A stretch of 64,000 bases of DNA. Source: Streptosporangiaceae bacterium NEAU-GS5 (GTDB lineage: Bacteria > Actinomycetota > Actinomycetes > Streptosporangiales > Streptosporangiaceae). This document shows, one piece after another, positions 2,664 through 38,813 of this stretch. Where the stretch lies: NCBI GenBank assembly GCA_017592665.1, contig JAGFNW010000009.1, positions 1-64,000 of the forward strand. The letters are read 5' to 3'. Under the pieces are notes generated by a model. The model did no database searches. It was not told the origin of the DNA and worked only from the letters and a program-made list of their open reading frames with translations. Both the position numbers and the translations under genes were made by a program. How positions within the stretch are numbered: the stretch's first letter is position 1; each line of letters begins with the position of its first letter.

Positions 2664-2666
2664 ATC

Positions 2667-9135: not shown

Positions 9136-9171
9136 CCTAATCGGATCCCTTGTGCGCGTTCGTCACCATAC

Positions 9172-9214: not shown

Positions 9215-9215
9215 G

Positions 9216-9781: not shown

Positions 9782-9783
9782 TC

Positions 9784-9818: not shown

Positions 9819-9825
9819 TCCGCGA

Positions 9826-9839
9826 GTGACGTACATCAC
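9826..9839. promoter_or_regulatory. CRP-like palindrome GTGA-N6-TCAC
   Basis: GTGACGTACATCAC has the GTGA-N6-TCAC symmetry of Crp/Fnr-family sites. It lies 330 nt before the dioxygenase start. The rest of 9840-10169 holds no recognised gene. Confidence 0.25.
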
Positions 9840-10169
9840 CAGACGGGTCGCGGGGTAGGCGGGCGCGCCACACCTGGAGCTGCCTCGGGCGGACTCTGCT
9901 CGTCGCGGCACAACCGCGTCGGCCGTCCCGTTCCGCGTGGCCTGGTTCAACGGTGGCGGGGCATGCTTGCCGGTCTCTTCCCATCCGTCCTGGTGGTCCG
10001 CGGCCCCATCGGGCTCGGGCGCGCCCGATGGAGAGACCGCGGGTCGGCGGCGAGACCTTGGTCAGCAATCGAGCGGATGCCGTCGGCGCGGCCGGACGCC
10101 AGTGTGAGGAGCACTGCGAACAGCCGGGGGAGCAATTGCGCCCACACTCCACGCCGAAGGAGTTTCACC

Positions 10170-11231
10170 GTGCCGACATCCGCTCAGTACCTCCATCGCG
10201 CATCGTGCGATATCCCCTATTCCAGCGCTGACGGCGCTACGTACAGCGCCGAGACCCCGTTGCGCGGCCTCGTCAAGTCTCTGCCGCTACGGGTGCTCAG
10301 CCCCGAGGACTTCGAGTTCTGGCAGACCTACGGTTACGTCGTGGTGCCGCGCGCGATCGCGCCTGAGGCGGCGGCGGCGCTGCTCGACTTCCTCTGGGAC
10401 TTCCAGGGCATGGACCCGCTCGACCCCGAGTCCTGGTACGCCGAGCGCCCCTACCGCTCCGATCTGGATCGGGAGCTGCACATCTACGGGTTCGTCGAGG
10501 CCTACCACCACCAGCTGATCTGGGACAGCCGGCAGGCGCCCCGGGTCTACGACGCCTTCGCCGACGTCTGGGACTGCGAGCAACTGTGGGTCAGCCTCGA
10601 CCGGCTCAACCTCAACCCGCCGAACGTGCGCAACCGCGACCGGAAGCTGATCGCGCCGACCGACTCCGGCTTCGACATCAATCTGCACTGGGACGTCGAC
10701 TCCACGCAGAGCGTGCAGCCCCAGCGGGTGCAGGGGATCATTGCGCTTACCGACACCGAGGAGGCGCTCGGCGGCTTCCAGTGCTGCCCCGAGCTCTTCC
10801 GGAACTTCGACCGGTGGAAGGTCGGCCAGCCCGCGGACCGCGATCCCGTGCGCCCGGCCATCTCCCGGGACGAGTATCCCGTCGTCCGGCCGCGCCTGCA
10901 CGCCGGAGACCTGTTGATCTGGAACGGAATGCTGGCCCACGGCGTCGCGGCCAACACCTCGGAACGGGGCGTGCGCGCGGCCCAATATCTGTCGATGATG
11001 CCGGCCCTCGAGACCCACCACGAGCTCAGGCGTTCGCGGGTCGACTCGTGGCGCACGCTGAGCACCCCGGATTGGGACCCGACGCTGGTCGGCGACGGGA
11101 TCCTGCACGAGTCCCAGCGCTATGGTCCCGCCGCGCTGACCGAACTCGGTGAGAAGCTGCTCGGCCTGCGCTCATGGCACGGCGGCGCCGGCGGCGGGGC
11201 GGTCGAGCCGCTCGAGGAGGTGCAGGCGTGA
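10170..11231 (+). CDS. Phytanoyl-CoA dioxygenase (PhyH) family Fe(II)/2-oxoglutarate oxygenase
   Basis: A 353-aa oxygenase that should hydroxylate or otherwise oxidise a small-molecule substrate using Fe(II), O2 and 2-oxoglutarate. The iron triad is visible: H173 and D175 in INLHWDVDS, and H257 in NGMLAHGVA, with R269 (GVRAAQY) placed to hold 2-oxoglutarate. The N-terminal region DFEFWQTYGYVVVPRAI is the standard PhyH opening. The start is taken as the GTG at 10170 behind GAAGGAG. It is the first of four overlapping genes; its stop overlaps the next start (GTGA). In this context it is probably a tailoring enzyme; the substrate is unknown. Confidence 0.9.
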   Translation: MPTSAQYLHRASCDIPYSSADGATYSAETPLRGLVKSLPLRVLSPEDFEFWQTYGYVVVPRAIAPEAAAALLDFLWDFQGMDPLDPESWYAERPYRSDLDRELHIYGFVEAYHHQLIWDSRQAPRVYDAFADVWDCEQLWVSLDRLNLNPPNVRNRDRKLIAPTDSGFDINLHWDVDSTQSVQPQRVQGIIALTDTEEALGGFQCCPELFRNFDRWKVGQPADRDPVRPAISRDEYPVVRPRLHAGDLLIWNGMLAHGVAANTSERGVRAAQYLSMMPALETHHELRRSRVDSWRTLSTPDWDPTLVGDGILHESQRYGPAALTELGEKLLGLRSWHGGAGGGAVEPLEEVQA

Positions 11232-12607
11232 CCGCGGGCCGGCGCAGGGTCTGCCTCGCCCTGCCGACGAATCGGGCCTGCGGGGGGATGATCGCCGCGC
11301 TCTACGCCGAAGCCGCGTACGCCGCGGACACCGCCGACATCGAGGTACATGTACTGATTCTCGATTCGTCGGACAAGAGCACCCACGCCGCCCATCGGGG
11401 CGTCGTCGACGCGCTACCCCCGGCGGCGAACGTCACTGTTCACCTGCTCGACGAAGACGACCAGCGTCCGTTTCTCGAGTCGGCCATCCGCGCGTCAGGG
11501 CTCGAACGACCCGAACATCTGCTCTCGTTGATGCTGCCGGACGGCCTGTCGTACGGCGCCTGCACCAACCGCGTGTTCCTGATCGCCGCCGCGCTCGGCT
11601 GCGAGTCGGTGCACCGCCGCGACTCCGACACCGACTACCAGTGCGTGAACGGCGTGCCGCTCTATCCGATCCACCACGAGCTCGCGGTCGGCCTGCGCGC
11701 GGGCGACATCGTCGAGACGGTCACCGAGTCGCGGCTCGCTCCCGCCGACGCGGATCGCACCGTGGCGATCGCCGGGGCCTCGATGATCGGCGAGATGTCG
11801 GTGGACATCAGCGAGATGGAACGGCTCGACCCCGAGGTCTACCGCGAGGTCGTCGCGCTGTGGGCGCCGACCGACTGGAGCGACGCCCGCAAGAGCGATC
11901 TGGTGGCCGAGTCCTTCCGCGGGGCCGGGCCCGAGCGGTTCGTCCGCGATCACTCCGTGCTCGGGCGCGTCGACCCCATGCGGATCGACATGAGCAACAT
12001 CGCCTTCCACCGGGACACTTACGAGCGCATCCCGCTGCTGCCGGCACTCGACACGATCGGCAGCGACTACTTCCTGATGCACGCGATCTATGACGCGGGT
12101 CTGCCCGGCGTGCTGCACAACCGGCATATCCGCAACTACTACACCGGATATCGGCGCACGGACGCCGGATTCGCCTCCTACCAGCTGCGCTTCGTGAAGT
12201 TCTTCCTCTCCATGTTGTATCTGAACCACATCTACACGCGCATGGGCGAAATAGGCGCCGCCGGGTTGCTCGATTCCGATCACATTCTGCGTCCGGAAGC
12301 CATCGCCGCGCTGGCGCGCGAGAGCGCCCTGCTGGACACCGCGGAGAACCGGTGGCGCCTGGACGTCATCGACCGCTGCTACCGCAAGCTCGGCGGCAGG
12401 TACGCGACGTTCGCCGAGTCGATCGAGCGGCGCCGCCCGGAGTTGATCGAGCAGGCACGCGTCGACATCCAGGAGTTCGCCTACCTGACCGAGTCGTGGC
12501 CGGCGCTCGTACACGGGGCTCGCGCCGCGGCGGCAGGACTACAGCCTCGCGGCGCGGCGGCGGGACTGCGGCCCGGCGTGCTCGCACCCGATGACGGCGC
12601 GTCATGA
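11228..12607 (+). CDS. DUF6271 family protein, possible glycosyltransferase-like enzyme
   Basis: A 459-aa protein beginning at a GTG that overlaps the previous stop. The N-terminus (RRVCLALPTNRACGGMIAAL, then HVLILDSSD) and the segment MLPDGLSYGACTNRVFLIA with ESVHRRDSDTDYQ match DUF6271 proteins of actinomycetes. The Rossmann-like start and the acidic DSDTD segment resemble GT-A glycosyltransferases with a DxD metal site; this is inference, as no activity is known to me for the family. It lies between an oxygenase and a decarboxylase-acetyltransferase gene, which suggests a role in building the same product. The last about 25 residues are a low-complexity Ala/Gly/Arg tail. Confidence 0.78.
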   Translation: MTAGRRRVCLALPTNRACGGMIAALYAEAAYAADTADIEVHVLILDSSDKSTHAAHRGVVDALPPAANVTVHLLDEDDQRPFLESAIRASGLERPEHLLSLMLPDGLSYGACTNRVFLIAAALGCESVHRRDSDTDYQCVNGVPLYPIHHELAVGLRAGDIVETVTESRLAPADADRTVAIAGASMIGEMSVDISEMERLDPEVYREVVALWAPTDWSDARKSDLVAESFRGAGPERFVRDHSVLGRVDPMRIDMSNIAFHRDTYERIPLLPALDTIGSDYFLMHAIYDAGLPGVLHNRHIRNYYTGYRRTDAGFASYQLRFVKFFLSMLYLNHIYTRMGEIGAAGLLDSDHILRPEAIAALARESALLDTAENRWRLDVIDRCYRKLGGRYATFAESIERRRPELIEQARVDIQEFAYLTESWPALVHGARAAAAGLQPRGAAAGLRPGVLAPDDGAS

Positions 12608-14313
12608 CGCCGAGCCACTGGCTGCGCGAGGCGCTCGCCGCCGCCGACAGCGACCGGATCATCTACGACCTGTCCGGGATCGAGGGGCGGTACGACCGGC
12701 TGGTCGAGCGACTACCGGGAGTGGAGGTGCGCTTCGCCGTCAAGGCGTGCCCGATGGACGAGGTGATCGCCGCGCTCGCCGCGCGGGGCGCCGGATGCGA
12801 TGCGGCGAGTCCCAACGAGATCGCCCAGGCCCTGCGCGCGGGCGTGCCGGTGCACAAGATCCACTATGGCAACACCAGCAAGTCGGACCAGAACATCGCG
12901 GACGCGTACGCCGCGGGCGTACGCGACTTCGCGACCGACAGCGTGCAGGATGTGGCCGCCATCAGCGTTCACGCCCCCGGCTCGCGGGTGTTCTGCCGGA
13001 TCGTGACGGCCGGAGAGGGTGCCCTGTGGGGGCTGAGCCACAAGTTCGGCTGCTCGGTCTCCGACGCCGTCGCGGTGCTCGAAACCGCGGGCGAACTCGG
13101 TCTCGTCCCGGCCGGGCTGTCGGCGCACGTCGGCTCGCAGCAGATGCGGCCGGGGGCCTGGCGGGCCGTGTTCGACGACTTCGCCCACGTGATCGGCGTC
13201 CTTCGCGCGCGCGGCCTGCACCTCCAATACGTCAATCTCGGCGGCGGGCTCCCGGCGCTCGGCTACCTCGACCGGCGCGGCAACGCGCTCGAACCGCCGC
13301 TGGACAAGATCTTCGCCACCATCCGCGACGGCATGCAGCACCTGTCGGCGCAGAGCGCGACGCCACTGCGCTTCATCGCGGAGCCGGGACGCCACCTCGT
13401 CGCCGACCACGGCGCGATCCGCGCTCATGTGCATCGCCTCTCGGAACGCCAACTGATCGACGGGCGGCGCCAGCACTGGCTCTATCTCAGTGTCGGCAAG
13501 CACAACGGGCTCTACGAGATGGACGAACTCCAGTATCGGCTGATCTTCCCAACCCATCGGAGCCCCGCCGCCGACCGCGTGCCCGGGCCGCGCGTTTCCG
13601 CGGTCGTGGCCGGTCCGACCTGCGACAGCGACGACGCGTTCGGCCACGATGAGAGCCTGATCCAGGTGCCGGCGGACCTCAGGTCGGGCGACCCCGTGTG
13701 GATCCTGTCCTGCGGCGCTTACGCCGCCAGCTACACGACGCAGGGCTTCAACGGCATCGATCCGCTGCCGCACCAGTGGGTGCGCAGCGCGAGCCCGATC
13801 ATGCGGCCGATCCGCGCGGGCGACTGGGCCCGGATCGCGGAGATCGAACACGAGGCGTACGCGCCGCTGGGTCTGGCCGAGGGGATCGAGGCGCTGCGCG
13901 GGTGGGGGAGCGCGTCCCCCGAGACGTGCTTCGTGGTGGAGGTCGACGGAGGCGTCGCGGGCTACGTGCTCGCCGTGCCGCATCCGGCGGGCTCCGTGCC
14001 CGAGCTCGGCCGGCCGCCTGCAGCGACCGCCTCGGACGCCCGGACCGCGAACCTCCACCTGCACGACCTGACCCTGGCCCGCGCGTTCCACGGCAACGGC
14101 CTTGCCAAGCTCGCGCTGCGGCGGCTCGAGCGCGAGGCGGCGGCACGTGGGTTCGCGTCCATCGGCCTTGTCGCGGTCGGCGGGAGCGCGGGTTTCTGGG
14201 CGGCGTCCGGATTCGCGCCGAGAGCCGACGTCGACGTGCCCGAGGGGTACGGAACGCAGTCCACGTACATGTCCAAAGCTACGGAGGTCGATCGGCTTGC
14301 CGCACATCCGTGA
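12604..14313 (+). CDS. PLP-dependent amino-acid decarboxylase (type III) fused to a GNAT acetyltransferase
   Basis: A 569-aa two-domain enzyme. Residues 1-395 are an alanine-racemase-fold decarboxylase of the ornithine/lysine/diaminopimelate group: PLP lysine K47 in FAVKACP, H175 in HVGSQ, glycine loop 213-215, EPGR at 260-263, and C340-D341 in GPTCDSDD, the residues expected from the partner subunit. Residues about 399-569 form a GNAT N-acetyltransferase (MRPIRAGDWARIAEIEHEAY, then LARAFHGNGLAKLALRRLE as the acetyl-CoA loop). Separately these activities would turn a basic amino acid into a diamine and acylate an amine. The fusion suggests a decarboxylation-acylation sequence on one chain. 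ATGA overlap with the previous gene. Substrate specificity cannot be read from the sequence. Confidence 0.88.
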   Translation: MTPSHWLREALAAADSDRIIYDLSGIEGRYDRLVERLPGVEVRFAVKACPMDEVIAALAARGAGCDAASPNEIAQALRAGVPVHKIHYGNTSKSDQNIADAYAAGVRDFATDSVQDVAAISVHAPGSRVFCRIVTAGEGALWGLSHKFGCSVSDAVAVLETAGELGLVPAGLSAHVGSQQMRPGAWRAVFDDFAHVIGVLRARGLHLQYVNLGGGLPALGYLDRRGNALEPPLDKIFATIRDGMQHLSAQSATPLRFIAEPGRHLVADHGAIRAHVHRLSERQLIDGRRQHWLYLSVGKHNGLYEMDELQYRLIFPTHRSPAADRVPGPRVSAVVAGPTCDSDDAFGHDESLIQVPADLRSGDPVWILSCGAYAASYTTQGFNGIDPLPHQWVRSASPIMRPIRAGDWARIAEIEHEAYAPLGLAEGIEALRGWGSASPETCFVVEVDGGVAGYVLAVPHPAGSVPELGRPPAATASDARTANLHLHDLTLARAFHGNGLAKLALRRLEREAAARGFASIGLVAVGGSAGFWAASGFAPRADVDVPEGYGTQSTYMSKATEVDRLAAHP

Positions 14314-15544
14314 CGAGTTCCGGCGCGCGCAGGCGGCTGTCGGAGCCCTGTTCCTGCTGCTCGGCTTCCAGTACGCCACCTGGGCCTCGCGGCTGCCCGC
14401 GATCAAGGCGCGGCTCGCCCTCACCGATGGCGAGCTCGGCGTGCTGCTGATGACCTGCGGCATCGGCGCGGCCGCGTCGTTCCCGCTGGTCGCGGCGTTG
14501 ATCAAGCGGTACGGCTCGGCGAGGGTGTGCGCGGGATCGGCCGCGCTGCTGGCGTTCGTGCCGCTCGCCCTGGGTGTGGCGCCCGGCTTCCCGGTCGCCC
14601 TGCTCATCATGTGCGTGGACGGGGTGGGCATCGCCTGCCTGGACGTCGCCATGAACGCGCAGGGCGCACAGGTCGAGGAACGCTTCGCCCGCAAGACCAT
14701 GGGCAAACTGCACGCCACGTTCAGCGGGGGCGCGCTGCTCGGCGCCCTGCTCGCCTCGGCCGCGAGCGCGGCGACGCGGAACCTTGAAGCGCATTTCGCG
14801 ATCGCGGCGGCGGTGACCCTGCTGATCGTCGCCTACGCGCGCCGTGACCTGCTGACGGACCCCAAGCCGGCCCCGGCCCCGACTTCGGCCACTGCCAAGG
14901 CTCCGGCCAAGCGCCGGCGCCGAATCCATCTCAAGATCACAATGCCGGCCCGCGTCACCTTGTGGGCCGGCGCGGCGATGGCGTTCGCGACGATCGTCGA
15001 GGGCGCCATGAACGACTGGACCGCGCTTTACCTGGGGAGCGTGGCGAAGGCGGCGGTGGGACTGACCCCGCTCGGCATCGCCGTGTTCTCCATCGCGATG
15101 GTGGTCGCGCGGATCTGCTCCGACTCGTGGCGCAAGCGGTGGGGCGACGCGCGCGTCGTCGTCCTGGGCGCCCTGCTGGCCTGCGTGAGCCTCACGGCCG
15201 CGGTGCTGCTGCACGCGGTCGTCCCGGCTCTCGTGGGCTTCGCGCTCGTCGGGCTCGGCATCGCCTCCGTCGCTCCATGCGTCTACGTCGCCGCCGCCGG
15301 GAGCGGCACCGACGCGCTCGCCCTGGTCTCGGCCATGGGCACGGTCGGCCTGCTCATCGGCCCCGGCGCGATCGGCCTGATCGCCGGGGCCGCCGGACTC
15401 GCCTGGGCCATGGGCGGCGTCGCCCTCGCCGCCGCCGTCGTGGCCATCTGCTCCTCCCGCATCACCTGGCGTGACGCGCCCGGACATGCCGAGGCAGGCG
15501 CAGGCGACGAACCGGCGGTCGGCGCGAACCCCGTCGTGGCGTAG
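14297..15544 (+). CDS. MFS transporter
   Basis: A 415-aa membrane protein with about 12 hydrophobic helices and a basic central loop (AKAPAKRRRRIHLK) between the two halves. The first helices (FLLLGFQYATWASRLPAIKARL, partly quoted) are typical of the fucose-permease-like branch of the major facilitator superfamily. The start is taken as TTG at 14297 behind GGAGG, overlapping the previous gene by 17 nt. As the last gene of the PhyH-DUF6271-decarboxylase operon it most likely exports the product or imports a precursor. Confidence 0.86.
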   Translation: MPHIRDEFRRAQAAVGALFLLLGFQYATWASRLPAIKARLALTDGELGVLLMTCGIGAAASFPLVAALIKRYGSARVCAGSAALLAFVPLALGVAPGFPVALLIMCVDGVGIACLDVAMNAQGAQVEERFARKTMGKLHATFSGGALLGALLASAASAATRNLEAHFAIAAAVTLLIVAYARRDLLTDPKPAPAPTSATAKAPAKRRRRIHLKITMPARVTLWAGAAMAFATIVEGAMNDWTALYLGSVAKAAVGLTPLGIAVFSIAMVVARICSDSWRKRWGDARVVVLGALLACVSLTAAVLLHAVVPALVGFALVGLGIASVAPCVYVAAAGSGTDALALVSAMGTVGLLIGPGAIGLIAGAAGLAWAMGGVALAAAVVAICSSRITWRDAPGHAEAGAGDEPAVGANPVVA

Positions 15545-23642: not shown

Positions 23643-24590
23643 ATGGAAGCGAACACGTTTGCCACCTCGGCGTACATCGCCGCGCCCTATCAGCGGATCG
23701 TCGATTACCTCGCCGACCTGCAGAACCTCAACGAGTGGACGCTGTTCAGCCGCATGCGGAGCCAGGTCGACGAGTCGACGTGGCTCGGGACGGCGTCGGG
23801 CTATCAGCGGCCGCTCTACTACCACGTCAGGCGCGGCGGGCACGACGCATTCCAGTGGATCGAGTGGCATTGCGGGTTCGAGGAGGGTGTCTACCACCAG
23901 GTTTATCCGGTGCTCATCCTGCCGCCCGAGTATGTGGCGCCGGCGGAGCGGGAGCCGGGCGCCTACGTGCACTGGGTCAGCTTCGCCGATCCCGCGCGGC
24001 GCACGCCGATGATCGCCGAGGGCATGCCCGCCGTACACAGGGCCGAGTGCCGCGCGCTGAAGGCGGCGCTCGAGCGCGGCGCGGGGATGCGGCGCGCCGC
24101 CCGGGGGCGCCATGTCGTGCGGTCGGAGACCATATACGTCGACGCGCCCATCGGCAGCGGCGTCGAATACCTCCGCGACCTGCGATCCATGAAGGAGTAC
24201 GCGTTCCTCCTCCGCCCGGACGGCGAGATCCTGGCGGACGAGGGCACGTTCCTCGACGAATACGGCAGGCGCGTCGTGCTGCGTTCGCGTTCGCACGCCA
24301 TGGGTGAGGCGTCGATCGTGGAGCACGAGGCCTGCTATCCCGACGACGGCGGATTCGCGCAGCGCTCGCTCACGCTCCTCGTCCCCTGCTCGTACGCGTT
24401 CGGGCAATCCGAGGCGCGCGGCTTCATCAAGCACCGCGTCACGTTCTGGCCGGCCGACGAGTCGCAGGAGCTCGGACGCACGAGCATCGACGAGCTCCGC
24501 GCCGAGAGCGTCAACGTGAAACGCCTGCTGGAGGCCAAGGAGGGCAACCTGGAGTCGTTCGCCCGCGGTTTCAGCTACCAGCCGGTTTGA
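23643..24590 (+). CDS. Tandem SRPBCC (START-like) domain protein, possible cyclase
   Basis: A 315-aa protein with two START/SRPBCC-like halves. The first begins ATSAYIAAPYQRIVDYLADL; the second (about residue 160) begins VRSETIYVDAPIGSGVEYLR. Each start resembles the helix-strand opening of polyketide cyclase/aromatase domains. Two-domain SRPBCC proteins in actinomycete biosynthetic operons often act as cyclases, but no active-site residues can be identified here. It has GAAGGTGATCT before the ATG and lies 16 nt behind the ThDP gene. Its last 20 nt overlap the end of the convergent membrane GTPase gene. Confidence 0.7.
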   Translation: MEANTFATSAYIAAPYQRIVDYLADLQNLNEWTLFSRMRSQVDESTWLGTASGYQRPLYYHVRRGGHDAFQWIEWHCGFEEGVYHQVYPVLILPPEYVAPAEREPGAYVHWVSFADPARRTPMIAEGMPAVHRAECRALKAALERGAGMRRAARGRHVVRSETIYVDAPIGSGVEYLRDLRSMKEYAFLLRPDGEILADEGTFLDEYGRRVVLRSRSHAMGEASIVEHEACYPDDGGFAQRSLTLLVPCSYAFGQSEARGFIKHRVTFWPADESQELGRTSIDELRAESVNVKRLLEAKEGNLESFARGFSYQPV

Positions 24591-26352
24591 CCACGGTGAT
24601 CGAGTACGTCGAGTAGCCGGCCGAGGACGACTGGCCCGGCGACACCCACATTCGAAGCAGAAGCCAGCCCAGCAGGACGATCATCACGGTGGACATGACG
24701 ATGGTCGCGCCGGCGAGCGTGCGCCGGAACAGCAGATAGCTCAGCGGGGGCCGGCCGGCGGGACGTGGCTTGGCGTCCCACGGCCGGCGCGCGTCGCCCG
24801 CGGCCGGTTCGGTGGCGGCCGGACCGGCCACGGCGGCGTGCCCGTTCATGCGCAGCCCGGCCAGCCAGGCGAGCAGCTCGGCGATCTGCGGTCCCTGGGG
24901 AGGCAGCCCCGACGCGAGGTAGCGCACCTCGGCGCCCTGCTGACCGAGCTCGCGGACGAGATTGCCGAGGCCCATCAGGGTGAGCCACTGCGGCAGGTTC
25001 TCCACGCCCCGGCCGGACGTGGTCGCACGCAGCAGGTCGGCCTTGGTGAGGACGACGGCGACGCGGCGCTGGCGGCCGCCGTCGGCCCGCCCGGCCAGTT
25101 CGTTGCGCAGGCGGGTGAAGGTGTCGGCCGGATCCTCGCGGGACAGGGTCAGACCCTTGGCCTGCAGCGCCACCTTTTCGGTCTCCAGCAGGTTGTCCTG
25201 CACGTCGGGCAGCGCGAAGGGGTCCACGACCAGGATCAGCGCCTCGCCGTGCGCGAGGTAGCGCATCTCCTCGACCTTGCTCGCGCCGGTGTAGTGCTCG
25301 CCCGACGGATCGAACAGGTAGAGGATCCGGTTGCCGCCCGTCTTGCCGGGCATCGCCACGTCCAGCATCACGGCTTTGGGCAGGTCGGGCAGCGTCTTGC
25401 TGATCTTGCCCGAGGACAGCTCCCGGCGCAGCTGCTGGAAGGCCAGCTCGTCGCTCTTGTCGAAGAACAGCGTCCGGCCGCCCGAGGCGCTCACCGCGCC
25501 GTGAATGGCGTCGACCGCGAGCGCCATGAGCGTGGTCTTGCCGGCGTCGGGGCCGCCGGCGAACGGCAGCGGCTCGATCCGCACCCGGCCGACGCGGGTC
25601 GGCAGCTGCCGGTCGCAGTTCGGGCAGTACGCCTGAAGGCGGTAGCGCCCGAGCATGATGGTCGTCGGCAGCCGGGTGCCGCACTGGCACACGTGCCGGG
25701 TGGCGCCGTTCTTGTTGGGGGTCAGGTCGGCGTGCTTGTTCCCGCAGTGGGAGCAGGCGTACACCGGCAGCGTGAACCGCGCGTAACAGCCCGGATAGGG
25801 ACACGTCTGGAGGATGCGGCGGGCGAGCATGAAGACCTGCTCCACGCCTCGAAGGACCGCCACGCAGACGAGCCAGACGAGCATCCCGGCCGCGACCGTC
25901 AGCGCGTACAGGGCCATGATCAGCACGAAGAGGGCGAAGACGGGAAGCGCGGCCGTCACGATCGCGCCGCAGATGCCGATCCAGAGGGGGAACAGGAACC
26001 AGCCCTGCTCGCCGCCGACGAGCGTGGAGGTGACCTTGCGCAAGGTGCGGGCGGCGCGTTCGTTGATCTCCGGGACGGTGGTGTTGACGACGACCTGCCA
26101 GTCCTTCCACACCTGCCCGCTCAGGTAGTGCGGGTAGGCGGGATCGCGTCCGGAGCCGCTCGCGGGGGTGGCGACCGGCGCCGGGCCGCCCGCCGCGTCC
26201 GGCAGCAGGATCCGCCATACCTGCCGCGAGTAGAGGCCGACCGCGAACAGCGTGCTGCCCAGCAGGACGAGCGGGAAGAGCACGAGGGCGGCGAAGATGC
26301 CCGCGCCCACCGCCACTACCCAGGCGATGAGTATGAACAGCAGGAACCACAT
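24571..26352 (-). CDS. Membrane-anchored double-GTPase-type (TRAFAC) protein with zinc ribbons
   Basis: A 593-aa protein starting MWFLLFILIAW with two N-terminal helices, a second helix pair (about 125-190), cysteine clusters (CPYPGC, CSHCG, CQCG, CPNCDRQ at about 200-270), then a P-loop GTPase domain: GGPDAGKTTLM as Walker A, LYLFDPSGEH as Walker B and VLTKADLL as the base-specificity motif. A C-terminal helix (ATIVMSTVMIVLLGWLLL) ends in a short tail. GTPases of this type, called DO-GTPase in published predictions of NTP-dependent conflict systems, occur next to GAP1 proteins as here. It is the last gene of the operon; ATG overlaps the GAP1 stop (TGATG). Role inferred, not known. Confidence 0.8.
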   Translation of the reverse strand: MWFLLFILIAWVVAVGAGIFAALVLFPLVLLGSTLFAVGLYSRQVWRILLPDAAGGPAPVATPASGSGRDPAYPHYLSGQVWKDWQVVVNTTVPEINERAARTLRKVTSTLVGGEQGWFLFPLWIGICGAIVTAALPVFALFVLIMALYALTVAAGMLVWLVCVAVLRGVEQVFMLARRILQTCPYPGCYARFTLPVYACSHCGNKHADLTPNKNGATRHVCQCGTRLPTTIMLGRYRLQAYCPNCDRQLPTRVGRVRIEPLPFAGGPDAGKTTLMALAVDAIHGAVSASGGRTLFFDKSDELAFQQLRRELSSGKISKTLPDLPKAVMLDVAMPGKTGGNRILYLFDPSGEHYTGASKVEEMRYLAHGEALILVVDPFALPDVQDNLLETEKVALQAKGLTLSREDPADTFTRLRNELAGRADGGRQRRVAVVLTKADLLRATTSGRGVENLPQWLTLMGLGNLVRELGQQGAEVRYLASGLPPQGPQIAELLAWLAGLRMNGHAAVAGPAATEPAAGDARRPWDAKPRPAGRPPLSYLLFRRTLAGATIVMSTVMIVLLGWLLLRMWVSPGQSSSAGYSTYSITVVKPAGS

Positions 26353-28592
26353 CAGCGGCCTCCCCAGCGCCGGATTCCGCGGCGCCTGGACTTCATGAGC
26401 TCCTGCAGCCCCGCCATCAGCTCCCGGTCGTTCTTGAACCGGCTCTCCATGGACCCGAACGGCGACCAGCTGTTGACGAAGTCCTCGGCCCACTGATCCA
26501 GGCGGGGGATCTGCACGTCGGCCCGGCGGAGCCGGATCGCGATCTCCAGCAGGGCGGCCTGCTCGTCGCGGCCGGCCCGCGCCGTGAGCCAGCCGTCGAG
26601 CAGCCAGCGGCGGGCCGGCTCGGACAGCCGGCGAAGCAGCTCCATGCGGAACCGCGTGTCCTGCTTGGCGAGCGACTTGGCCGCCCAGGCACAGACCAGC
26701 GGCTGAAGCTCGCGATCGATGTGCGGGCTGAGTACCGTCAGGCGCTCCATCTGGGACACGGCCTGCCCGGGGGTGTGGATGTCGGCCATCTGGACCGCGC
26801 CCAGCACGGCCTCCGCGTCATCGGCGACGAACCCCTCCAGCCGGGCCTGCTGCACGTGGGTGGCGACCTTGGCGGCGTCCTGGCCTTTCAGGCCGGCCGC
26901 GACGTACAGGCGCGCCGGCAGGCTGCTCAGCGTGTGAGAGCTCTGCAGCCGGTCACCGGCGTGCTCGATGAGCCGATGGCACTCGTCGGCCGTGGGCTCG
27001 GCGCGCCAGATGGCGGCCAGCGCCTTCTCGCGTTCGTCCTGTCCCTGAGGCGGATGGTCCAAGGAGAGCAGCCGGACGGTCCCGTCGACGCGCCCCACGC
27101 GGCTCGTCTCGACCTGCCAGGCGATCACCATGGTGCCCGTGGCGGGCGCGGACCGCAGATCCCAATCGGCCAGCAGTCGGCATATATCCGGCTTTAGTAC
27201 GGCGGAGCGCGTGCGCGGCGACGACCGTTCCAGACCGGACACCAGCCCCGCCAAGAGCGGCTCGCGCCAGCCGAGCGGAGTGCGGCCGACCTGCTCGACG
27301 ACGCCGGTGAGCGCTGGACCGACCAGCGCCGCGGCGGCGTGCTCCACGTCGGCGGCCGGCAGCTCCAGGCAGCTCCTGTCGGCCACCCGCAGGATGCCGA
27401 CCAGGCGCGTCAGCTCACCGGCCGAGACCAGTTCGGTCCGCGCCGCGTCGGTCACCTCGCGCCGGTGCGCCTCGGGCAGCGGTCCGTGCGGCGGCGTCAG
27501 CGCGGGATCGAGCAGCGCCAGCAGGGCGCAGCGGGCGGCGAACGGGCCGGCGAACTCGGCCGGACCGTGCACGGCGACCGCCGCGGCGAGCGCGAAGCCG
27601 AGCAGACCGGCGTGCTCGCTGAGCGGTGGCCACACCCAGTCGGGCAGTCCGCCCTCGACGAGGACCGCGACCGCCGCCTGCTCGGCCGCGGACAGCTCGG
27701 CGCCGGTCAGGCAGAGCGCCACCAGGGCCGCCGCCGTATCGGGATCGGCCGCGTTGAACGCCGCGAGCTCGTCGATGCCGCCGAGATCCATGGAACGCCA
27801 CAGGTCCCGGACGGTGTCGGAGAACCGGCCGGTCTCGATCGGCTGCGGCTCCTCGGCGAGGGTGACCACGGTGGCGTCCACGTCGGTGGGAATCCACACG
27901 TCAGGCGTGGTCCCCACGATGACCTGCGTGGTGGAGGCCGGGTCTCCGCTGTAGGTGATGAACGACAGCCGCGTCACCGTCTCCCACGACAGCGAATAGG
28001 AGATCACCGCGATCCACCGGACGATCTCGTCGCTGTCCGGGCTCACCAGGACGAGCCTGCCCTGACCCGTCGCGAGGCTGCGGCGCGCGAGCTCGAGCAG
28101 GATGCCGAGACGCCGGTAGGCGACCGGGCCGCCCGCCTTGAGCCACTGCCCGAGGGATTCGGGGTCGAGTTCGGCGCCCGGCATCAGGTCGGTCAGCTCG
28201 GGCAACGGCGAGCCCGGCCCGGCCGGGACGTCGGCCCACAGCGCCGCCCGCCAGAACTCGATCGGCCGCAATCCGACCAGGTCGCCGTCGGTCAGCACCA
28301 ATGCGTGCCCGAGGAAGTTGCCGTAGCGGCCCGAATAGTCCTGCCCCAGGTAGACGCAGCGGGTCAGGGCGAACCTGTCGCCGGCGGGCCCGTACGACAG
28401 CGCCACCGGCATGGCGCGGATCTCGTCCGGAGCCGGCGCCGTCGGCAGGCTCGGCGGCGGCCGATAGGTGAGATAGGGCGTGACGTGCGCGGCCAGCCCG
28501 GCGGGCAGCCCCGGGGTCTCGGCCACGATCTGAAAGCCCGACCGGCCCGAGGGTCCCGACTCGGCGGACGTGTAGTGCAGCTGCCAAGCCAC
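26352..28592 (-). CDS. GTPase-associated protein 1 (GAP1-like)
   Basis: A 746-aa protein whose N-terminal about 180 residues (AWQLHYTSAESG, GRSGFQIVAETPGLP, YGNFLGHALVL) match the GAP1-N2 domain. The remainder is helical and Leu/Ala-rich, like the GAP1 middle and C-terminal regions. These proteins were defined by genomic association with TRAFAC-type GTPases, and their biochemical function is unknown. The start is GTG at 28592 with GGAGGT seven bases upstream. It is packed between two GTPase genes with 4 nt and overlapping spacing. I see no catalytic motif. Confidence 0.8.
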   Translation of the reverse strand: MAWQLHYTSAESGPSGRSGFQIVAETPGLPAGLAAHVTPYLTYRPPPSLPTAPAPDEIRAMPVALSYGPAGDRFALTRCVYLGQDYSGRYGNFLGHALVLTDGDLVGLRPIEFWRAALWADVPAGPGSPLPELTDLMPGAELDPESLGQWLKAGGPVAYRRLGILLELARRSLATGQGRLVLVSPDSDEIVRWIAVISYSLSWETVTRLSFITYSGDPASTTQVIVGTTPDVWIPTDVDATVVTLAEEPQPIETGRFSDTVRDLWRSMDLGGIDELAAFNAADPDTAAALVALCLTGAELSAAEQAAVAVLVEGGLPDWVWPPLSEHAGLLGFALAAAVAVHGPAEFAGPFAARCALLALLDPALTPPHGPLPEAHRREVTDAARTELVSAGELTRLVGILRVADRSCLELPAADVEHAAAALVGPALTGVVEQVGRTPLGWREPLLAGLVSGLERSSPRTRSAVLKPDICRLLADWDLRSAPATGTMVIAWQVETSRVGRVDGTVRLLSLDHPPQGQDEREKALAAIWRAEPTADECHRLIEHAGDRLQSSHTLSSLPARLYVAAGLKGQDAAKVATHVQQARLEGFVADDAEAVLGAVQMADIHTPGQAVSQMERLTVLSPHIDRELQPLVCAWAAKSLAKQDTRFRMELLRRLSEPARRWLLDGWLTARAGRDEQAALLEIAIRLRRADVQIPRLDQWAEDFVNSWSPFGSMESRFKNDRELMAGLQELMKSRRRGIRRWGGR

Positions 28593-28596
28593 GAGG

Positions 28597-29763
28597 CTAC
28601 CTCCGTACGCCGTTGAGCATCTTGAACCGATACAGCAGCCACAGCAGTGGGTCTTCGATCCGATAAGGGCGGATTCCGCTGCGCGCGACCGTCTCCCCCT
28701 CGGGGACGGCGCCGAGCGCGGACAGGCCGAACAGGGCGTAGTCGTTGTACTGCTGGCCGAGATAGCGGTCGATCTGGCCGGCCTGCCACTGGTGCAGCAG
28801 CGCGCGCACCTGCTCGTCGACGGCCTCTCTGTCGTCCAGGTCGAGCGCGCCGATCGGGTCGCGGGCGCGATGTAGCGCCGACTGCCGCTCCATCGACTCC
28901 CGCAGCTCGTCGATCTTGCTGAGCGCCACCGCCGCCGGAATCGCGAGCCGCCCTCCGTCCCGTTTGCGCAGCAGCTCGGTGACCCGTACGACGACGTCCA
29001 TCTGGTCGCTCAGCAGGTCGTTGGCGAGCGTCCCGCCGCGCTCTCGCGCCCCGCCGCTCAGCGCCGCCTGCGCGCCGGGCAGCTCCAGCGGATCGAGCAG
29101 GAAGATGACGGCGTCGGCGGCGTCGAGGTAGCGCAGGTGCAGTTCGCTCATCTCCCGCTGGCGCAGATCCTCGCCCGCCGTGTCGAACAGCACCAGGGTC
29201 AGCGAGGCCGTACGGCTGCGCAGCCGGCCGGGAATGGTCCGGGTGAACAGGTAGACCAGGGGATCGCGCGGCGTCGTCCCCGCCGACTGGGTGGCGACAA
29301 GGAGCTTGCGCTCGCCGTACAAGGGACGGGCGAAGTCCTGCTTGTAGCGTTCGATGGTCCGGTCGTCGCACGCCACGAGCGAGGCGTTCAGCTCCTCGCC
29401 GACGCGGTTCATCAGCTCGTGGATGAGCACCGCGATGAAGGTGCTCTTTCCCGCGTGCTTGGCCCCGACCAGTGCGACGATCTTGCCGGGATTCGCGCAG
29501 TATTCGGCGGGCAGACGGCTGTGGCACGACGGGCAGACCCGCACCCCGCTCTCGCGCGAGCAGGTGGGGCAGGTGGCGCGCCGGCCGGGTTTTCGTACCG
29601 AGAACACGGGCGGGAGGGCGGGCGGGGGAGCCACGCCTCGGAAGTCGCCGAGCTCCTGATCGGGTTTGGCCTCGCAGCCCTTTGTCTTGCCACTGGTCCC
29701 GAGGCAGCGGAAGGCGATCCGGTTGGGGGCCAGCTTCGTGAAGCAGTACGGACACGTGATCAT
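28597..29763 (-). CDS. Zinc-ribbon TRAFAC-class GTPase
   Basis: A 388-aa protein. The N-terminal about 90 residues contain cysteine pairs (CPYCFTKL, CPTCSRESG, CPSCHSRL) of zinc ribbons. A GTPase domain follows with Walker A ALVGAKHAGKSTF, Walker B LVLFDTAGED and ALSKIDEL in place of NKxD. No membrane helix is present, unlike the second GTPase of the operon. It belongs with the double-GTPase systems that carry GAP1. ATG at 29763; 4 nt separate it from the FN3-like gene. Confidence 0.84.
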   Translation of the reverse strand: MITCPYCFTKLAPNRIAFRCLGTSGKTKGCEAKPDQELGDFRGVAPPPALPPVFSVRKPGRRATCPTCSRESGVRVCPSCHSRLPAEYCANPGKIVALVGAKHAGKSTFIAVLIHELMNRVGEELNASLVACDDRTIERYKQDFARPLYGERKLLVATQSAGTTPRDPLVYLFTRTIPGRLRSRTASLTLVLFDTAGEDLRQREMSELHLRYLDAADAVIFLLDPLELPGAQAALSGGARERGGTLANDLLSDQMDVVVRVTELLRKRDGGRLAIPAAVALSKIDELRESMERQSALHRARDPIGALDLDDREAVDEQVRALLHQWQAGQIDRYLGQQYNDYALFGLSALGAVPEGETVARSGIRPYRIEDPLLWLLYRFKMLNGVRR

Positions 29764-29767
29764 GACC

Positions 29768-32284
29768 TCACCCGGCCCTCAGGACGCGCACCGGTGGGTC
29801 GATCAGTTCGACGCCGTCGGCGAAGCAACGCAGCCAGTAGGGCTTGGACTGCTTGGGCATGGGCGCGGTCAGCCGCGCCGGCGTGCTGACCGCCGTCCAT
29901 TCCGCGACCACGCGCCCTTCCTCGGCCGAGCTGGGCTGGATCCGGCCTGCCTTGATCACCAGGACCAGCCGGGCGATCTCCGCGGGCCGCTCGGAGGTCA
30001 CCTCGACGACCAGCGTCTTGCGGCCGAACGAGCCTTCGTGGCGAAGGTCGTACTGGATGGGGGTGAGAGCGGCCAGAGGCGCCCGCACCGCGGGACCGCG
30101 GATCCGCGCGCCCTTCATCACCGCGGTCGCGGCCACCTCGATGGTGGGCGCCTCGCTTTCAGGGATGTCGAGCCGGATGCCGCCCTGGCTCCGATATGCC
30201 GCCGACGTGATCACCTGATGCCTGCCATTCCAACGGACCTCGATCTCGGGCACGTCCTTCGGCCATTCGAGGCCGACGAAGACCACTCCACCGCGGCGCA
30301 CCGCGGTCACCTGACTCGGCGCGGGCAGGTTGACGTGCTCACGATGTGCGCCGAGGGTGGCGCTGTCCCCGACCACCGTGACCGCCACCAGCACGCCTGA
30401 CACGTTCGCGGCGCGGAGCACGTATCCGTCGCGGGTCTGCGTCGCCGCGAGCACCCGTCCCGCCGCGCGGACCTCCCGCAGCGGCAACGTGGTCCCGTAC
30501 GGCCAGCGCGGCTCGGCCGCGAACACCAGGAACTCGGCCACACCCGACGGGGGCTCGGCGCAGCGGATCAGCAAAGCGCCCGGGTCCGCCGCGGCCTGTT
30601 CGACCGTGAACTCGGCGATCGGCTCGGGCCGCGCCTCCGGCGTCACCGCCCGCCGCAGTCCGGGTGTGACGACCTCGCCCCTTCCGTCCGGATAAACGGC
30701 GGCGACGAGGTAGTGGTACGTGGTCCCGTTGCGCACATCGCGATCGCGGAACCCGGATCCCTCCACTGGGATCGGGCGGCCGTCGCGGGTGACGACCACG
30801 CGCAGCGCCTCCGGAGGCGTACGCCACTGACCGGTGACGATGCCGTCCACGGCGGTCAGCCGCAGCTCGTCGGGCTCCGGGCGGAAGGTCAGGGGAGCGG
30901 CGGCGATCGGGGCCGACGCCGCCTGCTTGCGCCGGGCCACCACCGAGTAGGTCACCGGCTTGTTGATCGGCGGTCGCTCGTCCCGCACGCCCGGGCGGGG
31001 AACCTCCGCGAAGACGACCCCGTCCCGCAGCACCTCGTAAGCGATCTCCCCGGCCCGGGACGGCGACGCGGACCAGGAAAGGACCACCCCATCGCCCTGC
31101 AGCGCGGCCCGCACGTCGCCGGGCGGGCGCGGGCCCAGCCCGGCCAGCAGATCCCCGATTCCGGGCAGGTCGGGTGCCCGGCTCAGCGCGTCCTCCAGCA
31201 TGATCCACGCCCGGTCGGGGTCGGTCTCCGCCCGCGCCTGGTCGCGTAATTGGACCGCCTTCGCCAGCCGGGAACGCACCTCCGCGGCCAGCTCGCCGGC
31301 TTCGGCGCCCAGCGCACCGTCCGGAAGCGCCTCCACGAAGTCGGCGGCCGCCTGAATCTCCCCGGCCTCGACAAGCTCGCGCAGCCGCCCCGCGGGGCCG
31401 CCGGACATCCCGGTCTCCTGCCGGATCGCGAAGATCAGCCGTTTCGCCTCGCCGGCGTCGAGACCCAGGTCGTCGATGGCGTGGCGCATCAGCGTGTCGT
31501 CGTACGGATGCTCGCGGACCCGTTCGCGCAACCGCGCGGCCATGTCGTACCGCAGCAGCGCGGCCGGATCCGGAGTGTTGCGCAGGCTGATGAACACCGT
31601 GTCGGCGCCCACCGTCCACGGGCCGCGCGTCTTGCGCTGGGCGTCCCGCTCTAGCATGGCGACCTGATCCAGGATCCCGGTGATGGGCCCGAGGACTTTG
31701 ATCCCCGTCTTCCTGGCCGTGAAGACGAAACCGGCGAGATGCCGCTCGCCCATGGTGTCGAGCGCCGCGCGCACCTTCGGATAGGCCGCGTACGGCGGGG
31801 TCTGCGGAAGCGGGTCGGGGTCGCGCACCTCGATGCCGAGCTCCTGCGCCACCCGGGTGGCGTCCTCGGCGCCCACACCACTCGACTTGGCGATGCCGGC
31901 CACGACGTCGGGCGGCAACATGCGCAGCTTGCCGGCCGCGTCGTCGAGCCGCCGCCGCAGGTCCGCCCGGCGTTTGGCGTCGCGCTCGGCGGACTGTCTG
32001 ATCTCCTCCTGCAGTGGGCCCGGCTGACCGGCGGCCGCGGCGTCGAACAGCGGGCTGTAGCGGGCGTGCTCCGTCTCCAGCGTGTCGATCAGCTTGCGGA
32101 ACTTCAGCATCTGCCGCGAACGGCGCCAGCACTGCCGCACCTGCCGCACGGTCTCGACCATCTCGGCCGCGCTCATGCCGTCGCGTAGCTGATAGCGCTG
32201 CCGGAGGTCGGCCGGGGGAGCGCCACCCGCCTGCCGGGCCGGCTCGAGCACGTCCCGGGTGTATCGGGCCTCGTCGAACGGCAT
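29768..32284 (-). CDS. Large helical plus fibronectin-type-III-like protein
   Basis: An 838-aa protein with no signal peptide. Residues 1-390 are charged and helical, including coiled-coil-like stretches (QMLKFRKLIDTLETEHARYS; ERDAKRRADLRRRLDDAAG). Residues about 395-840 read as repeated beta-sandwich units with FN3-type features (VVLSWSASPSRAGEIAYEVL; TYHYLVAAVYPDGRGEV; GLEWPKDVPEIEVRW). It sits 3 nt behind the Hsp70 gene and 4 nt before the GTPase gene, so it is an integral part of the module, perhaps a scaffold or client adaptor. I do not recognise the N-terminal part as a J-domain. Confidence 0.72.
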   Translation of the reverse strand: MPFDEARYTRDVLEPARQAGGAPPADLRQRYQLRDGMSAAEMVETVRQVRQCWRRSRQMLKFRKLIDTLETEHARYSPLFDAAAAGQPGPLQEEIRQSAERDAKRRADLRRRLDDAAGKLRMLPPDVVAGIAKSSGVGAEDATRVAQELGIEVRDPDPLPQTPPYAAYPKVRAALDTMGERHLAGFVFTARKTGIKVLGPITGILDQVAMLERDAQRKTRGPWTVGADTVFISLRNTPDPAALLRYDMAARLRERVREHPYDDTLMRHAIDDLGLDAGEAKRLIFAIRQETGMSGGPAGRLRELVEAGEIQAAADFVEALPDGALGAEAGELAAEVRSRLAKAVQLRDQARAETDPDRAWIMLEDALSRAPDLPGIGDLLAGLGPRPPGDVRAALQGDGVVLSWSASPSRAGEIAYEVLRDGVVFAEVPRPGVRDERPPINKPVTYSVVARRKQAASAPIAAAPLTFRPEPDELRLTAVDGIVTGQWRTPPEALRVVVTRDGRPIPVEGSGFRDRDVRNGTTYHYLVAAVYPDGRGEVVTPGLRRAVTPEARPEPIAEFTVEQAAADPGALLIRCAEPPSGVAEFLVFAAEPRWPYGTTLPLREVRAAGRVLAATQTRDGYVLRAANVSGVLVAVTVVGDSATLGAHREHVNLPAPSQVTAVRRGGVVFVGLEWPKDVPEIEVRWNGRHQVITSAAYRSQGGIRLDIPESEAPTIEVAATAVMKGARIRGPAVRAPLAALTPIQYDLRHEGSFGRKTLVVEVTSERPAEIARLVLVIKAGRIQPSSAEEGRVVAEWTAVSTPARLTAPMPKQSKPYWLRCFADGVELIDPPVRVLRAG

Positions 32285-32287
32285 CGG

Positions 32288-33874
<1,587 letters not shown>

Positions 33875-34438
33875 TTATCCGTCCTTCCGCCCCTCGTCTT
33901 CCTGCTTGCCGATCACTACGTCCGCCTTGCGCAGGACGCGCTCCTCCCGCTGGAATCCGGCCGCGACCACCGCCGTCACCTGTCCGTCGGGGCCCGGGGC
34001 CGTGCCGACCGCGCGGTGCCTTCCGGAGTCGTACGGGTCGCCCGGCGCGACCTCGAGCAACTCGGCCCCGGTCCGGGCCAGGACCTCGGCGACCTCGGCC
34101 GCGATCGCCTCCAGCAGGGCGCGGAAGTGGCGGTCGTCCTCCGGCGCGGCGGCGAGCCGGGCCGCCTCCCGCGCGGCCAGGTCGTAGAGGCGATAGAGGC
34201 CGGCCCGGACGGGTGTCAGGGCCTCTTCGAGCAAGCCGTGGCGGAGTTTCTGGTTTTCCGCATAAAGCCGGTCGATGATCTCTTCGCGATGCGCGGCGCG
34301 ATCGTGGTCGCGTTTGAACTCGGCCTTGATCTCCTCGGTCAGTCGATCCAGAGCGGTTGCTACAGGGTCAGTTTCCGACATAGCGGCTATTTCGGGAGAA
34401 TCCGGCGGAGTATCGCCATCGATGGGAGGAAGTGTCAT
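33875..34438 (-). CDS. GrpE-like nucleotide exchange factor
   Basis: A 187-aa protein with an acidic N-terminus, a long helical region (TEEIKAEFKRDHDRAAHREE, IIDRLYAENQKLRHGLL) and a C-terminal domain with GRHRAVGTAPGPDGQVTAVV and RVLRKADVVIGK, the GrpE pattern that binds the Hsp70 nucleotide domain. GrpE would speed ADP release from the adjacent Hsp70. It is the first gene of the operon. The start is uncertain: ATG at 34438 chosen; TTG at 34450 and ATG at 34381 are alternatives. No CIRCE or HAIR heat-shock operator was seen upstream. Confidence 0.82.
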   Translation of the reverse strand: MTLPPIDGDTPPDSPEIAAMSETDPVATALDRLTEEIKAEFKRDHDRAAHREEIIDRLYAENQKLRHGLLEEALTPVRAGLYRLYDLAAREAARLAAAPEDDRHFRALLEAIAAEVAEVLARTGAELLEVAPGDPYDSGRHRAVGTAPGPDGQVTAVVAAGFQREERVLRKADVVIGKQEDEGRKDG

Positions 34439-38261: not shown

Positions 38262-38813
38262 TCAGGGGCGTGCCGGCGGCGCCTGGTAGGAGAGCAGCGC
38301 GATGCCGGATTTGAGGACCTGGGCGCCGGTCAGTTCGAGCCGGGTGGCGTTGCCCTGGTTGAGCAGGAGGTCGCCGGGGCCGCCCACGCCGGCGAAATGA
38401 GGGTGCACCCACAGGTGCAGGACGTCGAGCAGCCCGTTGGTCATCAGGGTGTTCGCCACCGGCCCGAAACCGTGCATCATGATGTCGCCGCCCTGCTGCT
38501 TCAGCTTGGCCACCTCGGTCACCAGGTCGCCCCTGATCACCGTCGTGTTGTTCCAGCCGGCCTTGTCGAGGGTGGTCGAGGCCACGTACTTCGGCATGGC
38601 GTTGATCATGTCCGCGTACGCGTTGCCGCGTCCGGGCCAGGCGGATGCGTAGATCTCGTACGTGTGACGGCCCATCAGCATGGATTCGCATGATCGCAGC
38701 TGTTCCAGGGTGATCTGGTCGGACTCGTCGTCGACGTAGGCGAAGTGCCACACGTCCATGTGGTTGATGACCCCGTCGACGCTGACGAACGTGGAGTTGA
38801 TGATCTTTCCCAT
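38262..38813 (-). CDS. Dihydrofolate reductase family protein (RibD C-terminal-like)
   Basis: A 183-aa protein with the DHFR/RibD-C fold pattern: GKIINSTFVSVDGVI, MLMGRHTYEIYASAWPG, PKYVASTTL, GDIMMHGFGPVANTLM and ELTGAQVLKSGIALLSY. Such stand-alone proteins reduce unidentified substrates with NADPH. GGAGG stands six bases before the ATG. It is divergent from an AfsR-like regulator and convergent with the HxlR gene (30 nt gap). Confidence 0.85.
   Translation of the reverse strand: MGKIINSTFVSVDGVINHMDVWHFAYVDDESDQITLEQLRSCESMLMGRHTYEIYASAWPGRGNAYADMINAMPKYVASTTLDKAGWNNTTVIRGDLVTEVAKLKQQGGDIMMHGFGPVANTLMTNGLLDVLHLWVHPHFAGVGGPGDLLLNQGNATRLELTGAQVLKSGIALLSYQAPPARP

What the first reader, a model, noticed from the sequence alone, without database searches (positions are those of the whole stretch)
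24571..34438. GrpE-Hsp70-FN3-GTPase-GAP1-GTPase module
Six genes are separated by 0 to 4 nt or overlap, so they work together. The Hsp70 is lid-less and comes with its own GrpE but no recognised J-protein; two different GTPases flank a GAP1 protein. GAP1 and double-GTPase proteins have been predicted as parts of NTP-dependent conflict or immunity systems in multicellular bacteria, but no mechanism is known. A private chaperone pair inside such a system is especially worth testing.
Basis: partly seen in the sequence, partly recalled or inferred. Interest (0 to 1): 0.68.

Follow-up and report, generated by a model that had tools for sequence, protein, structure and literature searches.

The report
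J-less Hsp70–GTPase operon, six genes
Six bacterial genes for a small private chaperone, two molecular switches and their scaffold proteins travel together as a unit of a predicted (untested) immune-type system, and the chaperone appears to have dropped its usual helper protein in favour of a new partner.

Summary
The six genes are real, tightly packed and in the order read. The kind is known: the HSP70/GrpE theme of GAP1-N2 DO-GTPase systems predicted by Kaur et al. 2020. It is not housekeeping: the genome has two full DnaKs, each with a nearby DnaJ gene, and GAP1-N2 is in 112 of 249 genomes of the order.

New here: 'no J-protein' is mirrored inside the Hsp70. In 36 of 36 such Hsp70s the arginine that docks the HPD motif of J-domains (DnaK R167) is D, N or G and linker L392-D393 is lost, while D8, K70, E171 and T199 stay; 13 of 13 housekeeping DnaKs keep all. 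Of 59 lid-less Hsp70s without R167, 49 precede a protein with the N-terminal domain of the window's FN3 protein, 17 of them with no GAP1 or GTPase in view. The one lid-less Hsp70 seen beside a J-domain gene keeps R167.

Best reading: a J-independent Hsp70 driven by its own partner domain, feeding a GTPase switch at the membrane. Immunity is unproven; J-replacement is inferred.

The parts
33875..34438 (-). GrpE-type nucleotide exchange factor (187 aa from ATG; TTG at 34450 possible)
   Evidence: PF01025 4.7e-11; PDB 3a6m GrpE 1.2e-5
32288..33874 (-). lid-less Hsp70, 528 aa; ATPase residues kept, J-docking residue and linker motif changed
   Evidence: PF00012 6.8e-104; residue counts
33446..33448 (-). 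codon of Asp143, at the place of DnaK Arg167 (HPD docking)
   Evidence: alignment with E. coli DnaK
32708..32722 (-). TIKTV (residues 385-389), in place of the DnaK interdomain linker LLLDV; preceded by an insertion of about 24 residues
   Evidence: 43-61 residues between DnaK 368 and 389 in 36 such Hsp70s, 21 in 13 housekeeping ones
29768..32284 (-). FN3-repeat protein, 838 aa
   Evidence: family profile hits FnIII chains
32015..32284 (-). N-terminal partner domain (residues 1-90) of the FN3 protein, all helical in the model; follows R167-less Hsp70s in several operon types
31118..31402 (-). TPR-like helical stretch (residues 295-389)
   Evidence: weak structural matches, best Z 5.6
28597..29763 (-). 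DO-GTPase with N-terminal CxxC pairs (residues 4, 65, 77), taken as zinc ribbons
   Evidence: DO-GTPase2 1.1e-8; G1/G3/G4 core residues (GK, DxxG, K-x-D) kept in 37 of 37 rows
26352..28592 (-). GAP1 (N2 + M domains, then a long helical repeat in the model)
   Evidence: PF20013 4.1e-39, PF20014 1e-19; model pLDDT 89.7
24571..26352 (-). membrane DO-GTPase: two long N-terminal hydrophobic stretches (1-43, 114-178; room for four TMs) and one C-terminal (540-574)
   Evidence: DO-GTPase2 5e-29; hydropathy

Best explanation
The operon is a GAP1-N2 DO-GTPase system of the HSP70/GrpE theme. SHOWN by sequence: membership, conserved order, intact nucleotide sites of Hsp70 and both GTPases, loss of the canonical J-docking residues, and a recurrent pairing of this Hsp70 type with a downstream protein that carries the partner domain at its start. 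INFERRED: the Hsp70 is an ATP switch that no longer answers to HPD J-proteins. Its hydrolysis is instead triggered by, or its client delivered by, the N-terminal domain of the FN3 protein; GrpE resets it. The FN3-GAP1 scaffold passes the state to the soluble and the membrane GTPase, which act as a threshold switch at the envelope. The response may be immune or envelope stress; I favour a stress/conflict sensor without a separate toxin gene.
For: Membership. Co-inheritance: tree distances of GrpE, Hsp70, FN3, GTP1 and GAP1 correlate at 0.93-0.98 over 30 loci that include both copies of two genomes (G063, G048); GTP2 0.77-0.82, where cross-hits of its profile on GTP1 add noise (no control for shared species history). 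J-docking loss: R167 is D 28, N 4, G 4 of 36; N170, L392 and D393 never kept; L391 is I or V; D8, K70, E171, T199 kept in 36 of 36; 13 of 13 housekeeping DnaKs keep R167/N170/L391/L392/D393. R167-D35 contact and non-functional DnaK R167A: passages of PMC13012618. Pairing: 49 of 59 lid-less non-R167 Hsp70s have the partner domain in the next gene (two more, L120 and L129, have it in an over-extended ORF); 17 of the 49 have no GAP1 or GTPase hit in view. Among Hsp70s whose loci were fetched because of the Hsp70 alone it is 20 of 24 (L008, L165, L166, L197-L216). Contrast: the R. pseudokoreensis plasmid Hsp70, lid-less, keeps R167 and N170 and its next gene has a Pfam J-domain plus TPRs. The window has no J-domain gene nearby: the genome's three J-domains lie on contigs C51 (two) and C45, the window on C117.
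Against: These Hsp70s are a divergent sub-family: 42 of 170 positions fixed in the housekeeping set are never kept, so R167 is one of many changes. The 49 pairs fall in few lineages and are not independent; most GAP1 loci among them were fetched through FN3 or GAP1 hits and so are biased towards having the domain. The domain profile was built with L165 and L166 in it (the FN3 profile without them also finds them, 8.2e-25 and 6.3e-31). Exceptions: after L120 and L129 are allowed for, 8 of 59 lack a detectable partner domain: five GAP1 loci with G167 (L113, L115, L116, L204, L206), the CHAT-linked L008, the extra copy in L121 and the second copy in L206. One lid-less fragment at a stretch end, L122:17690, keeps R with no J-domain gene in view. 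The partner domain also persists in g3 loci without Hsp70. The R167/J contrast rests on a single locus, whose J loop reads HPN, not HPD. No experiment.
Confidence: 0.5

Rival explanations
1. The Hsp70 is still driven in trans by one of the genome's three housekeeping J-proteins through a shifted interface, and the operon is a plain GAP1-N2 HSP70 system as described, with HSP70 as the assembling effector.
For: Three J-domain proteins are present; Kaur et al. propose HSP70 and tubulin as multimer-forming effectors; E217, another J contact named in PMC13012618, is kept in 21 of 31 operon rows, the window among them.
Against: R167, N170, L392 and D393 are absent from all 36 such Hsp70s and present in 13 of 13 housekeeping ones; DnaK R167A is described as non-functional unless DnaJ carries D35N (PMC13012618, passage).
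Confidence: 0.25
2. The unit is a conserved envelope or developmental regulator, not a conflict system.
For: No separate variable effector gene in the window operon; proteins are conserved at 65-85% between the window and N. glycinis (L075), FN3 71%; flanking genes shared between some loci of the same genus; no match of GTPase-1 in 50,697 phage records and only 2 in 72,556 plasmid records.
Against: Patchy: 18 of 57 genera of the order; second copies in some genomes; under the filters no gene next to the window operon is shared with the fetched relatives (one farther ORF, 38262-38813, with L121); loss and decay of the chaperone in some loci.
Confidence: 0.35
3. The FN3 N-terminal domain is a decayed J-domain; Hsp70 and J-domain lost the D35-R167 contact together.
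For: Model order: short helix 27-31, long helix 39-56, tight turn, helix 60-84; nine relatives carry an invariant DHP[KR]YR at that turn by alignment; the Rhodococcus J-TPR protein has W..KQNHPN at a like distance.
Against: Profile comparisons with J-domains: P 0.11 to 0.58; 5 of 100 and 64 of 200 column shuffles score as high; no PF00226 among hits of 22 members at E<=1; Foldseek gave no match at E<=0.001 for the model of residues 1-392.
Confidence: 0.3

Closest known systems
[quoted passage not shown] 2020 eLife e52696 (PMC7159879; abstract and passages seen)
   Same: GAP1-N2, DO-GTPase pair with one membrane member, FNIII protein, HSP70, GrpE; actinobacteria
   Different: There the FNIII protein is said to be typically fused to DnaJ or TPR; here no J-domain is found and a TPR-like stretch is only weakly seen, and the Hsp70 has lost the J-docking arginine, which the passages seen do not mention
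Canonical DnaK-DnaJ-GrpE
   Same: Hsp70 NBD and beta-SBD, GrpE, ATPase residues
   Different: No lid, no adjacent J-protein, R167/N170/L392/D393 lost, insertion before the linker; far below NCBIfam's DnaK and GrpE equivalog cut-offs
Hsp70-(J-TPR)-GrpE-FtsK locus on a Rhodococcus pseudokoreensis plasmid (L164)
   Same: lid-less Hsp70 with own GrpE and a TPR partner
   Different: J-domain present and R167 kept; no GAP1 or GTPase hit in the stretch

Membership tests
GAP1-N2 DO-GTPase system (Kaur 2020) | GAP1 with N2 and M domains | tested here: met
   PF20013 4.1e-39, PF20014 1e-19
GAP1-N2 DO-GTPase system (Kaur 2020) | GAP1-C domain | tested here: inconclusive
   no Pfam hit; modelled as helical repeat
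GAP1-N2 DO-GTPase system (Kaur 2020) | DO-GTPases with a conserved Glu in Walker B | tested here: met
   E after DxxG in 37 of 37 GTP1 and 33 of 33 GTP2 rows, taken as that Glu
GAP1-N2 DO-GTPase system (Kaur 2020) | zinc ribbons; second GTPase with 4 N-terminal and 1 C-terminal TM helices | tested here: inconclusive
   consistent, but by motif and hydropathy only: CxxC at 4/65/77 and 200/243; hydrophobic stretches 1-43, 114-178, 540-574
GAP1-N2 DO-GTPase system (Kaur 2020) | FNIII-repeat protein | tested here: met
   relatives
GAP1-N2 HSP70 theme | HSP70 and GrpE genes | tested here: met
GAP1-N2 HSP70 theme | FNIII protein fused to DnaJ or to TPR (said to be typical, not required) | tested here: inconclusive
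   no PF00226 hit in P0003 or nine relatives nor in 22 N-termini; TPR alternative weakly seen, best Z 5.6
canonical J-dependent Hsp70 | R167 and the L392-D393 linker residues | tested here: not met
   0 of 36
J-domain (for the FN3 N-terminus) | HPD loop | tested here: not met
   no HPD in the window copy or in the rows
J-domain (for the FN3 N-terminus) | J-domain profile or fold | tested here: inconclusive
   profile P 0.11-0.58; fold search says residues 1-90 were barely tested
anti-phage defence system | protects against phage | not testable with these tools
   only weak PADLOC matches, best E 0.002

The most novel reading that the evidence does not exclude
A portable two-gene cassette exists in actinobacteria: a lid-less Hsp70 that has abandoned J-proteins, plus a dedicated ~90-residue partner domain that replaces the J-domain as ATPase trigger. 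It is plugged into at least three operon types, one of them the GAP1/DO-GTPase system, as an ATP-driven threshold switch.
Probability: 0.35. Interest if true: 0.82.

Novelty: new variant of a known kind. Interest (0 to 1): 0.6.

Why it matters
Textbook Hsp70s need a J-domain to fire. A whole Hsp70 sub-family that kept its ATPase residues but lost the J-docking arginine, and that travels with one new partner domain, would show that the J-domain can be replaced and names the two proteins to mix in a test tube. It would also give the GAP1/DO-GTPase systems, which as far as I saw rest on prediction, a first biochemical handle.

Tried and rejected
Housekeeping chaperone: rejected (two other DnaKs; 112 of 249 genomes). 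Heat-shock control: no HAIR- or CIRCE-like site in the window with up to 3 mismatches (motifs recalled). J-domain hidden in the FN3 N-terminus: not supported; the structural second look tested residues 100-150 and 295-389 best, so the fold of 1-90 remains open. Weak Pfam hits of the N-terminal domain, not followed: ANAPC16 in 4 of 22 members (best 2e-4), EAD7 in 1 of 22 (0.011). First idea that the N-terminal domain occurs only with Hsp70: false; g3 loci L112 (= L143), L125, L127, L128, L131, L132 and L133 have it without Hsp70, and in their seven genomes only one DnaK of about 318-322 bits was found at E<=1e-40 (G085, searched too, gave no match at all). Hsp70 without a detected GrpE: L087, L094, L117, L124. 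GAP1 fold: Foldseek gave no match at E<=0.001 (best 7.1e-3, adaptor and HEAT-type solenoids), read only as a helical repeat. Genus search held only the own genome. FN3 profile over the phylum: 7 of 296 genomes at 1e-10, own genome included, five of them only over a single FN3-repeat stretch. GTPase-1 on plasmids: two Rhodococcus megaplasmids; GAP1: none. One search's list of 30 complete loci overstates: L085 and L090 lack a separate GTPase-2 in view because the GTP2 profile cross-hits GTP1; I therefore count distinct ORFs. labels housekeeping DnaKs 'op_' by a wrong score cut; one search redoes the count. In one search, L197 and L210 are cut by contig ends just behind the partner-domain gene, so 'no GAP1' says little for those two of the 17. 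The grouping of non-GAP1 loci into types is by eye. One search lists a paper that holds 'DO-GTPase' once (PMC11237479) and one search lists PMC4595643; I opened neither. Bacillota systems with a true FNIII-DnaJ fusion, the best test of R167 against J, were not reached.
Full report
WHAT IS THERE. The six genes are confirmed at the stated place and spacing. The genome (9.96 Mb, 127 contigs) carries GAP1-N2 once and two DO-GTPases over the cut-off, both in this operon. It has two full-size DnaKs on contig C51 and further Hsp70-like proteins, among them two on C36. Three J-domains were found: two on C51, one near each DnaK, and one on C45. The flanking genes look unrelated: a polyketide-cyclase-like gene (hit below cut-off) convergent downstream and a HAD gene divergent upstream.

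WHAT IT IS. Kaur et al. 2020 (PMC7159879; abstract and passages seen) describe this set as the second theme, about 14%, of GAP1-N2 neighbourhoods: HSP70 and GrpE, with an FNIII-repeat protein typically fused to DnaJ or TPR; [quoted passage not shown] The window fits, with ribbons and TMs judged by motif and hydropathy only. The listings of four literature searches show no experiment on such a system; the library holds only open-licence papers and I did not open the other listed papers.

DISTRIBUTION. GAP1-N2 occurs in 112 of 249 genomes of the order, own genome included (18 of 57 genera), but in 8 of 396 of a phylum-wide sample, own genome included. The FN3 protein of the window is matched in 113 of 249 (some only over FN3 stretches). 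Nonomuraea glycinis is the only named holder returned (65% GAP1 identity). Six distinct genes in the same order were seen in the window plus 27 of 60 fetched neighbourhoods and 4 of 20 later ones. Other GAP1-N2 loci show no Hsp70 or GrpE in the stretch fetched (for example L103-L106, L108-L110, L119). GrpE without Hsp70 was not seen; Hsp70 without a detected GrpE was (L087, L094, L117, L124). In g3 genomes the pair seems lost: L112, L125, L127, L128, L131 and L133 keep the other four genes, and searches of their genomes show only the housekeeping DnaK; L134 and L139 hold short Hsp70 remnants in front of FN3.

THE HSP70 LACKS THE J SITE. In 36 Hsp70s that stand before an FN3 gene, against 13 housekeeping DnaKs (11 from g3 genomes, two own), numbered by E. 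coli DnaK: D8, K70, P143, E171, T199 and D201 are kept in all. R167 is D (28), N (4) or G (4) in the first set and R in 13 of 13 controls. N170, L392 and D393 are never kept, L391 is I or V. The lid is gone in all 36, and 43-61 residues instead of 21 separate DnaK positions 368 and 389. PMC13012618 (passages) reports that D35 of the HPD motif contacts R167, H33 contacts L391, and DnaK R167A is non-functional unless DnaJ carries D35N. That N170 and D393 also belong to the J interface is recalled. A fair caution: 42 of 170 housekeeping-fixed positions are never kept in this sub-family, so R167 is one of many changes; and another named J contact, E217, is kept in 21 of 31 rows.

THE PARTNER DOMAIN. 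The FN3 protein begins with a ~90-residue helical domain (model pLDDT 88.6 for residues 1-392) without a convincing Pfam match. Searching the fetched loci with its profile: of 62 Hsp70s over 300 bits, 59 are lid-less without R167. 49 of the 59 have the domain at or near the start of the next gene, and L120 and L129 have it in an ORF that my caller over-extended. 17 of the 49 lie in stretches with no GAP1 or GTPase hit: one type with zinc ribbons in the two members scanned (L197-L202, L213; Pfam on L199 and L200), a second type (L203, L205, L207, L208, L214), a Nocardia/Tsukamurella type that may be related to the second (L165, L166, L209, L210), and L117, whose FN3 is of the GAP1 kind. L197 and L210 are cut just behind the partner gene. 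The 16 other than L117 were fetched for their Hsp70 alone, from a class-wide scan (43 of 345 genomes) or a plasmid search (4 of its 47 records fetched). In all loci fetched for the Hsp70 alone the domain follows 20 of 24 R167-less Hsp70s. The GAP1 loci were mostly fetched through FN3 or GAP1 and are biased. The exceptions are listed under evidence against. The only lid-less Hsp70 next to a J-domain gene (L164) keeps R167, N170 and an EVLDV linker, and that J-domain reads HPN; a second R-keeping lid-less entry is a fragment at a stretch end (L122).

HOW IT MAY WORK. From this I infer a J-independent Hsp70 whose cycle is started by the FN3 N-terminal domain and reset by GrpE, with FN3 and the GAP1 helical repeat (model pLDDT 89.7) as scaffold between it and two GTPases with intact motifs, one in the membrane. 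The five proteins other than GTPase-2 share one history (distance correlations 0.93-0.98; species history not controlled), which fits a physical complex. What the complex answers to is unknown. For a conflict role speak the family context, patchiness, second copies, and a sister Hsp70 in this genome that lies 10 nt behind a CHAT-domain protein gene. Against it speak conserved sequence (65-85% to N. glycinis), no variable effector gene, and near absence from phage and plasmid records.

VERDICT. Known kind, real and intact; the new element is the J-less Hsp70 with its recurrent partner domain.

Noticed in passing
L008 (own genome contig C36), 7697-13439, minus strand: A CHAT-domain protein (1381 aa, PF12770 1.9e-34) lies 10 nt upstream of an Hsp70 of the same R167-less type (D at 167; 595 bits to the operon profile).
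   Followed up: partly
L009 (own genome contig C36), 3903-10737: An 882-aa Hsp70-like protein (V at the R167 place) is encoded convergently with two dynamin-like GTPase genes.
   Followed up: no
L164 (Rhodococcus pseudokoreensis plasmid), 1-14588: Hsp70, J-TPR protein, GrpE and FtsK-type ATPase genes sit beside TniB/TniQ and recombinase genes: another Hsp70-based unit next to a transposon.
   Followed up: partly
L134:7388-7897 and L139:10569-11012: Hsp70 remnants directly before the FN3 gene: the chaperone decayed while the rest stayed.
   Followed up: partly
L105:9375-12047: An FN3 protein of a GAP1 locus without a separate Hsp70 carries an Hsp70-like stretch (PF00012 1.3e-11, residues 284-392).
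   Followed up: no
L206:3954-5519: A second lid-less Hsp70 (E at the R167 place) stands at the downstream end of a GAP1 operon that already has one.
   Followed up: no
control genomes: Corynebacterium glutamicum is the only one of 14 control genomes with a GAP1-N2 protein: a tractable laboratory host for this family.
   Followed up: no
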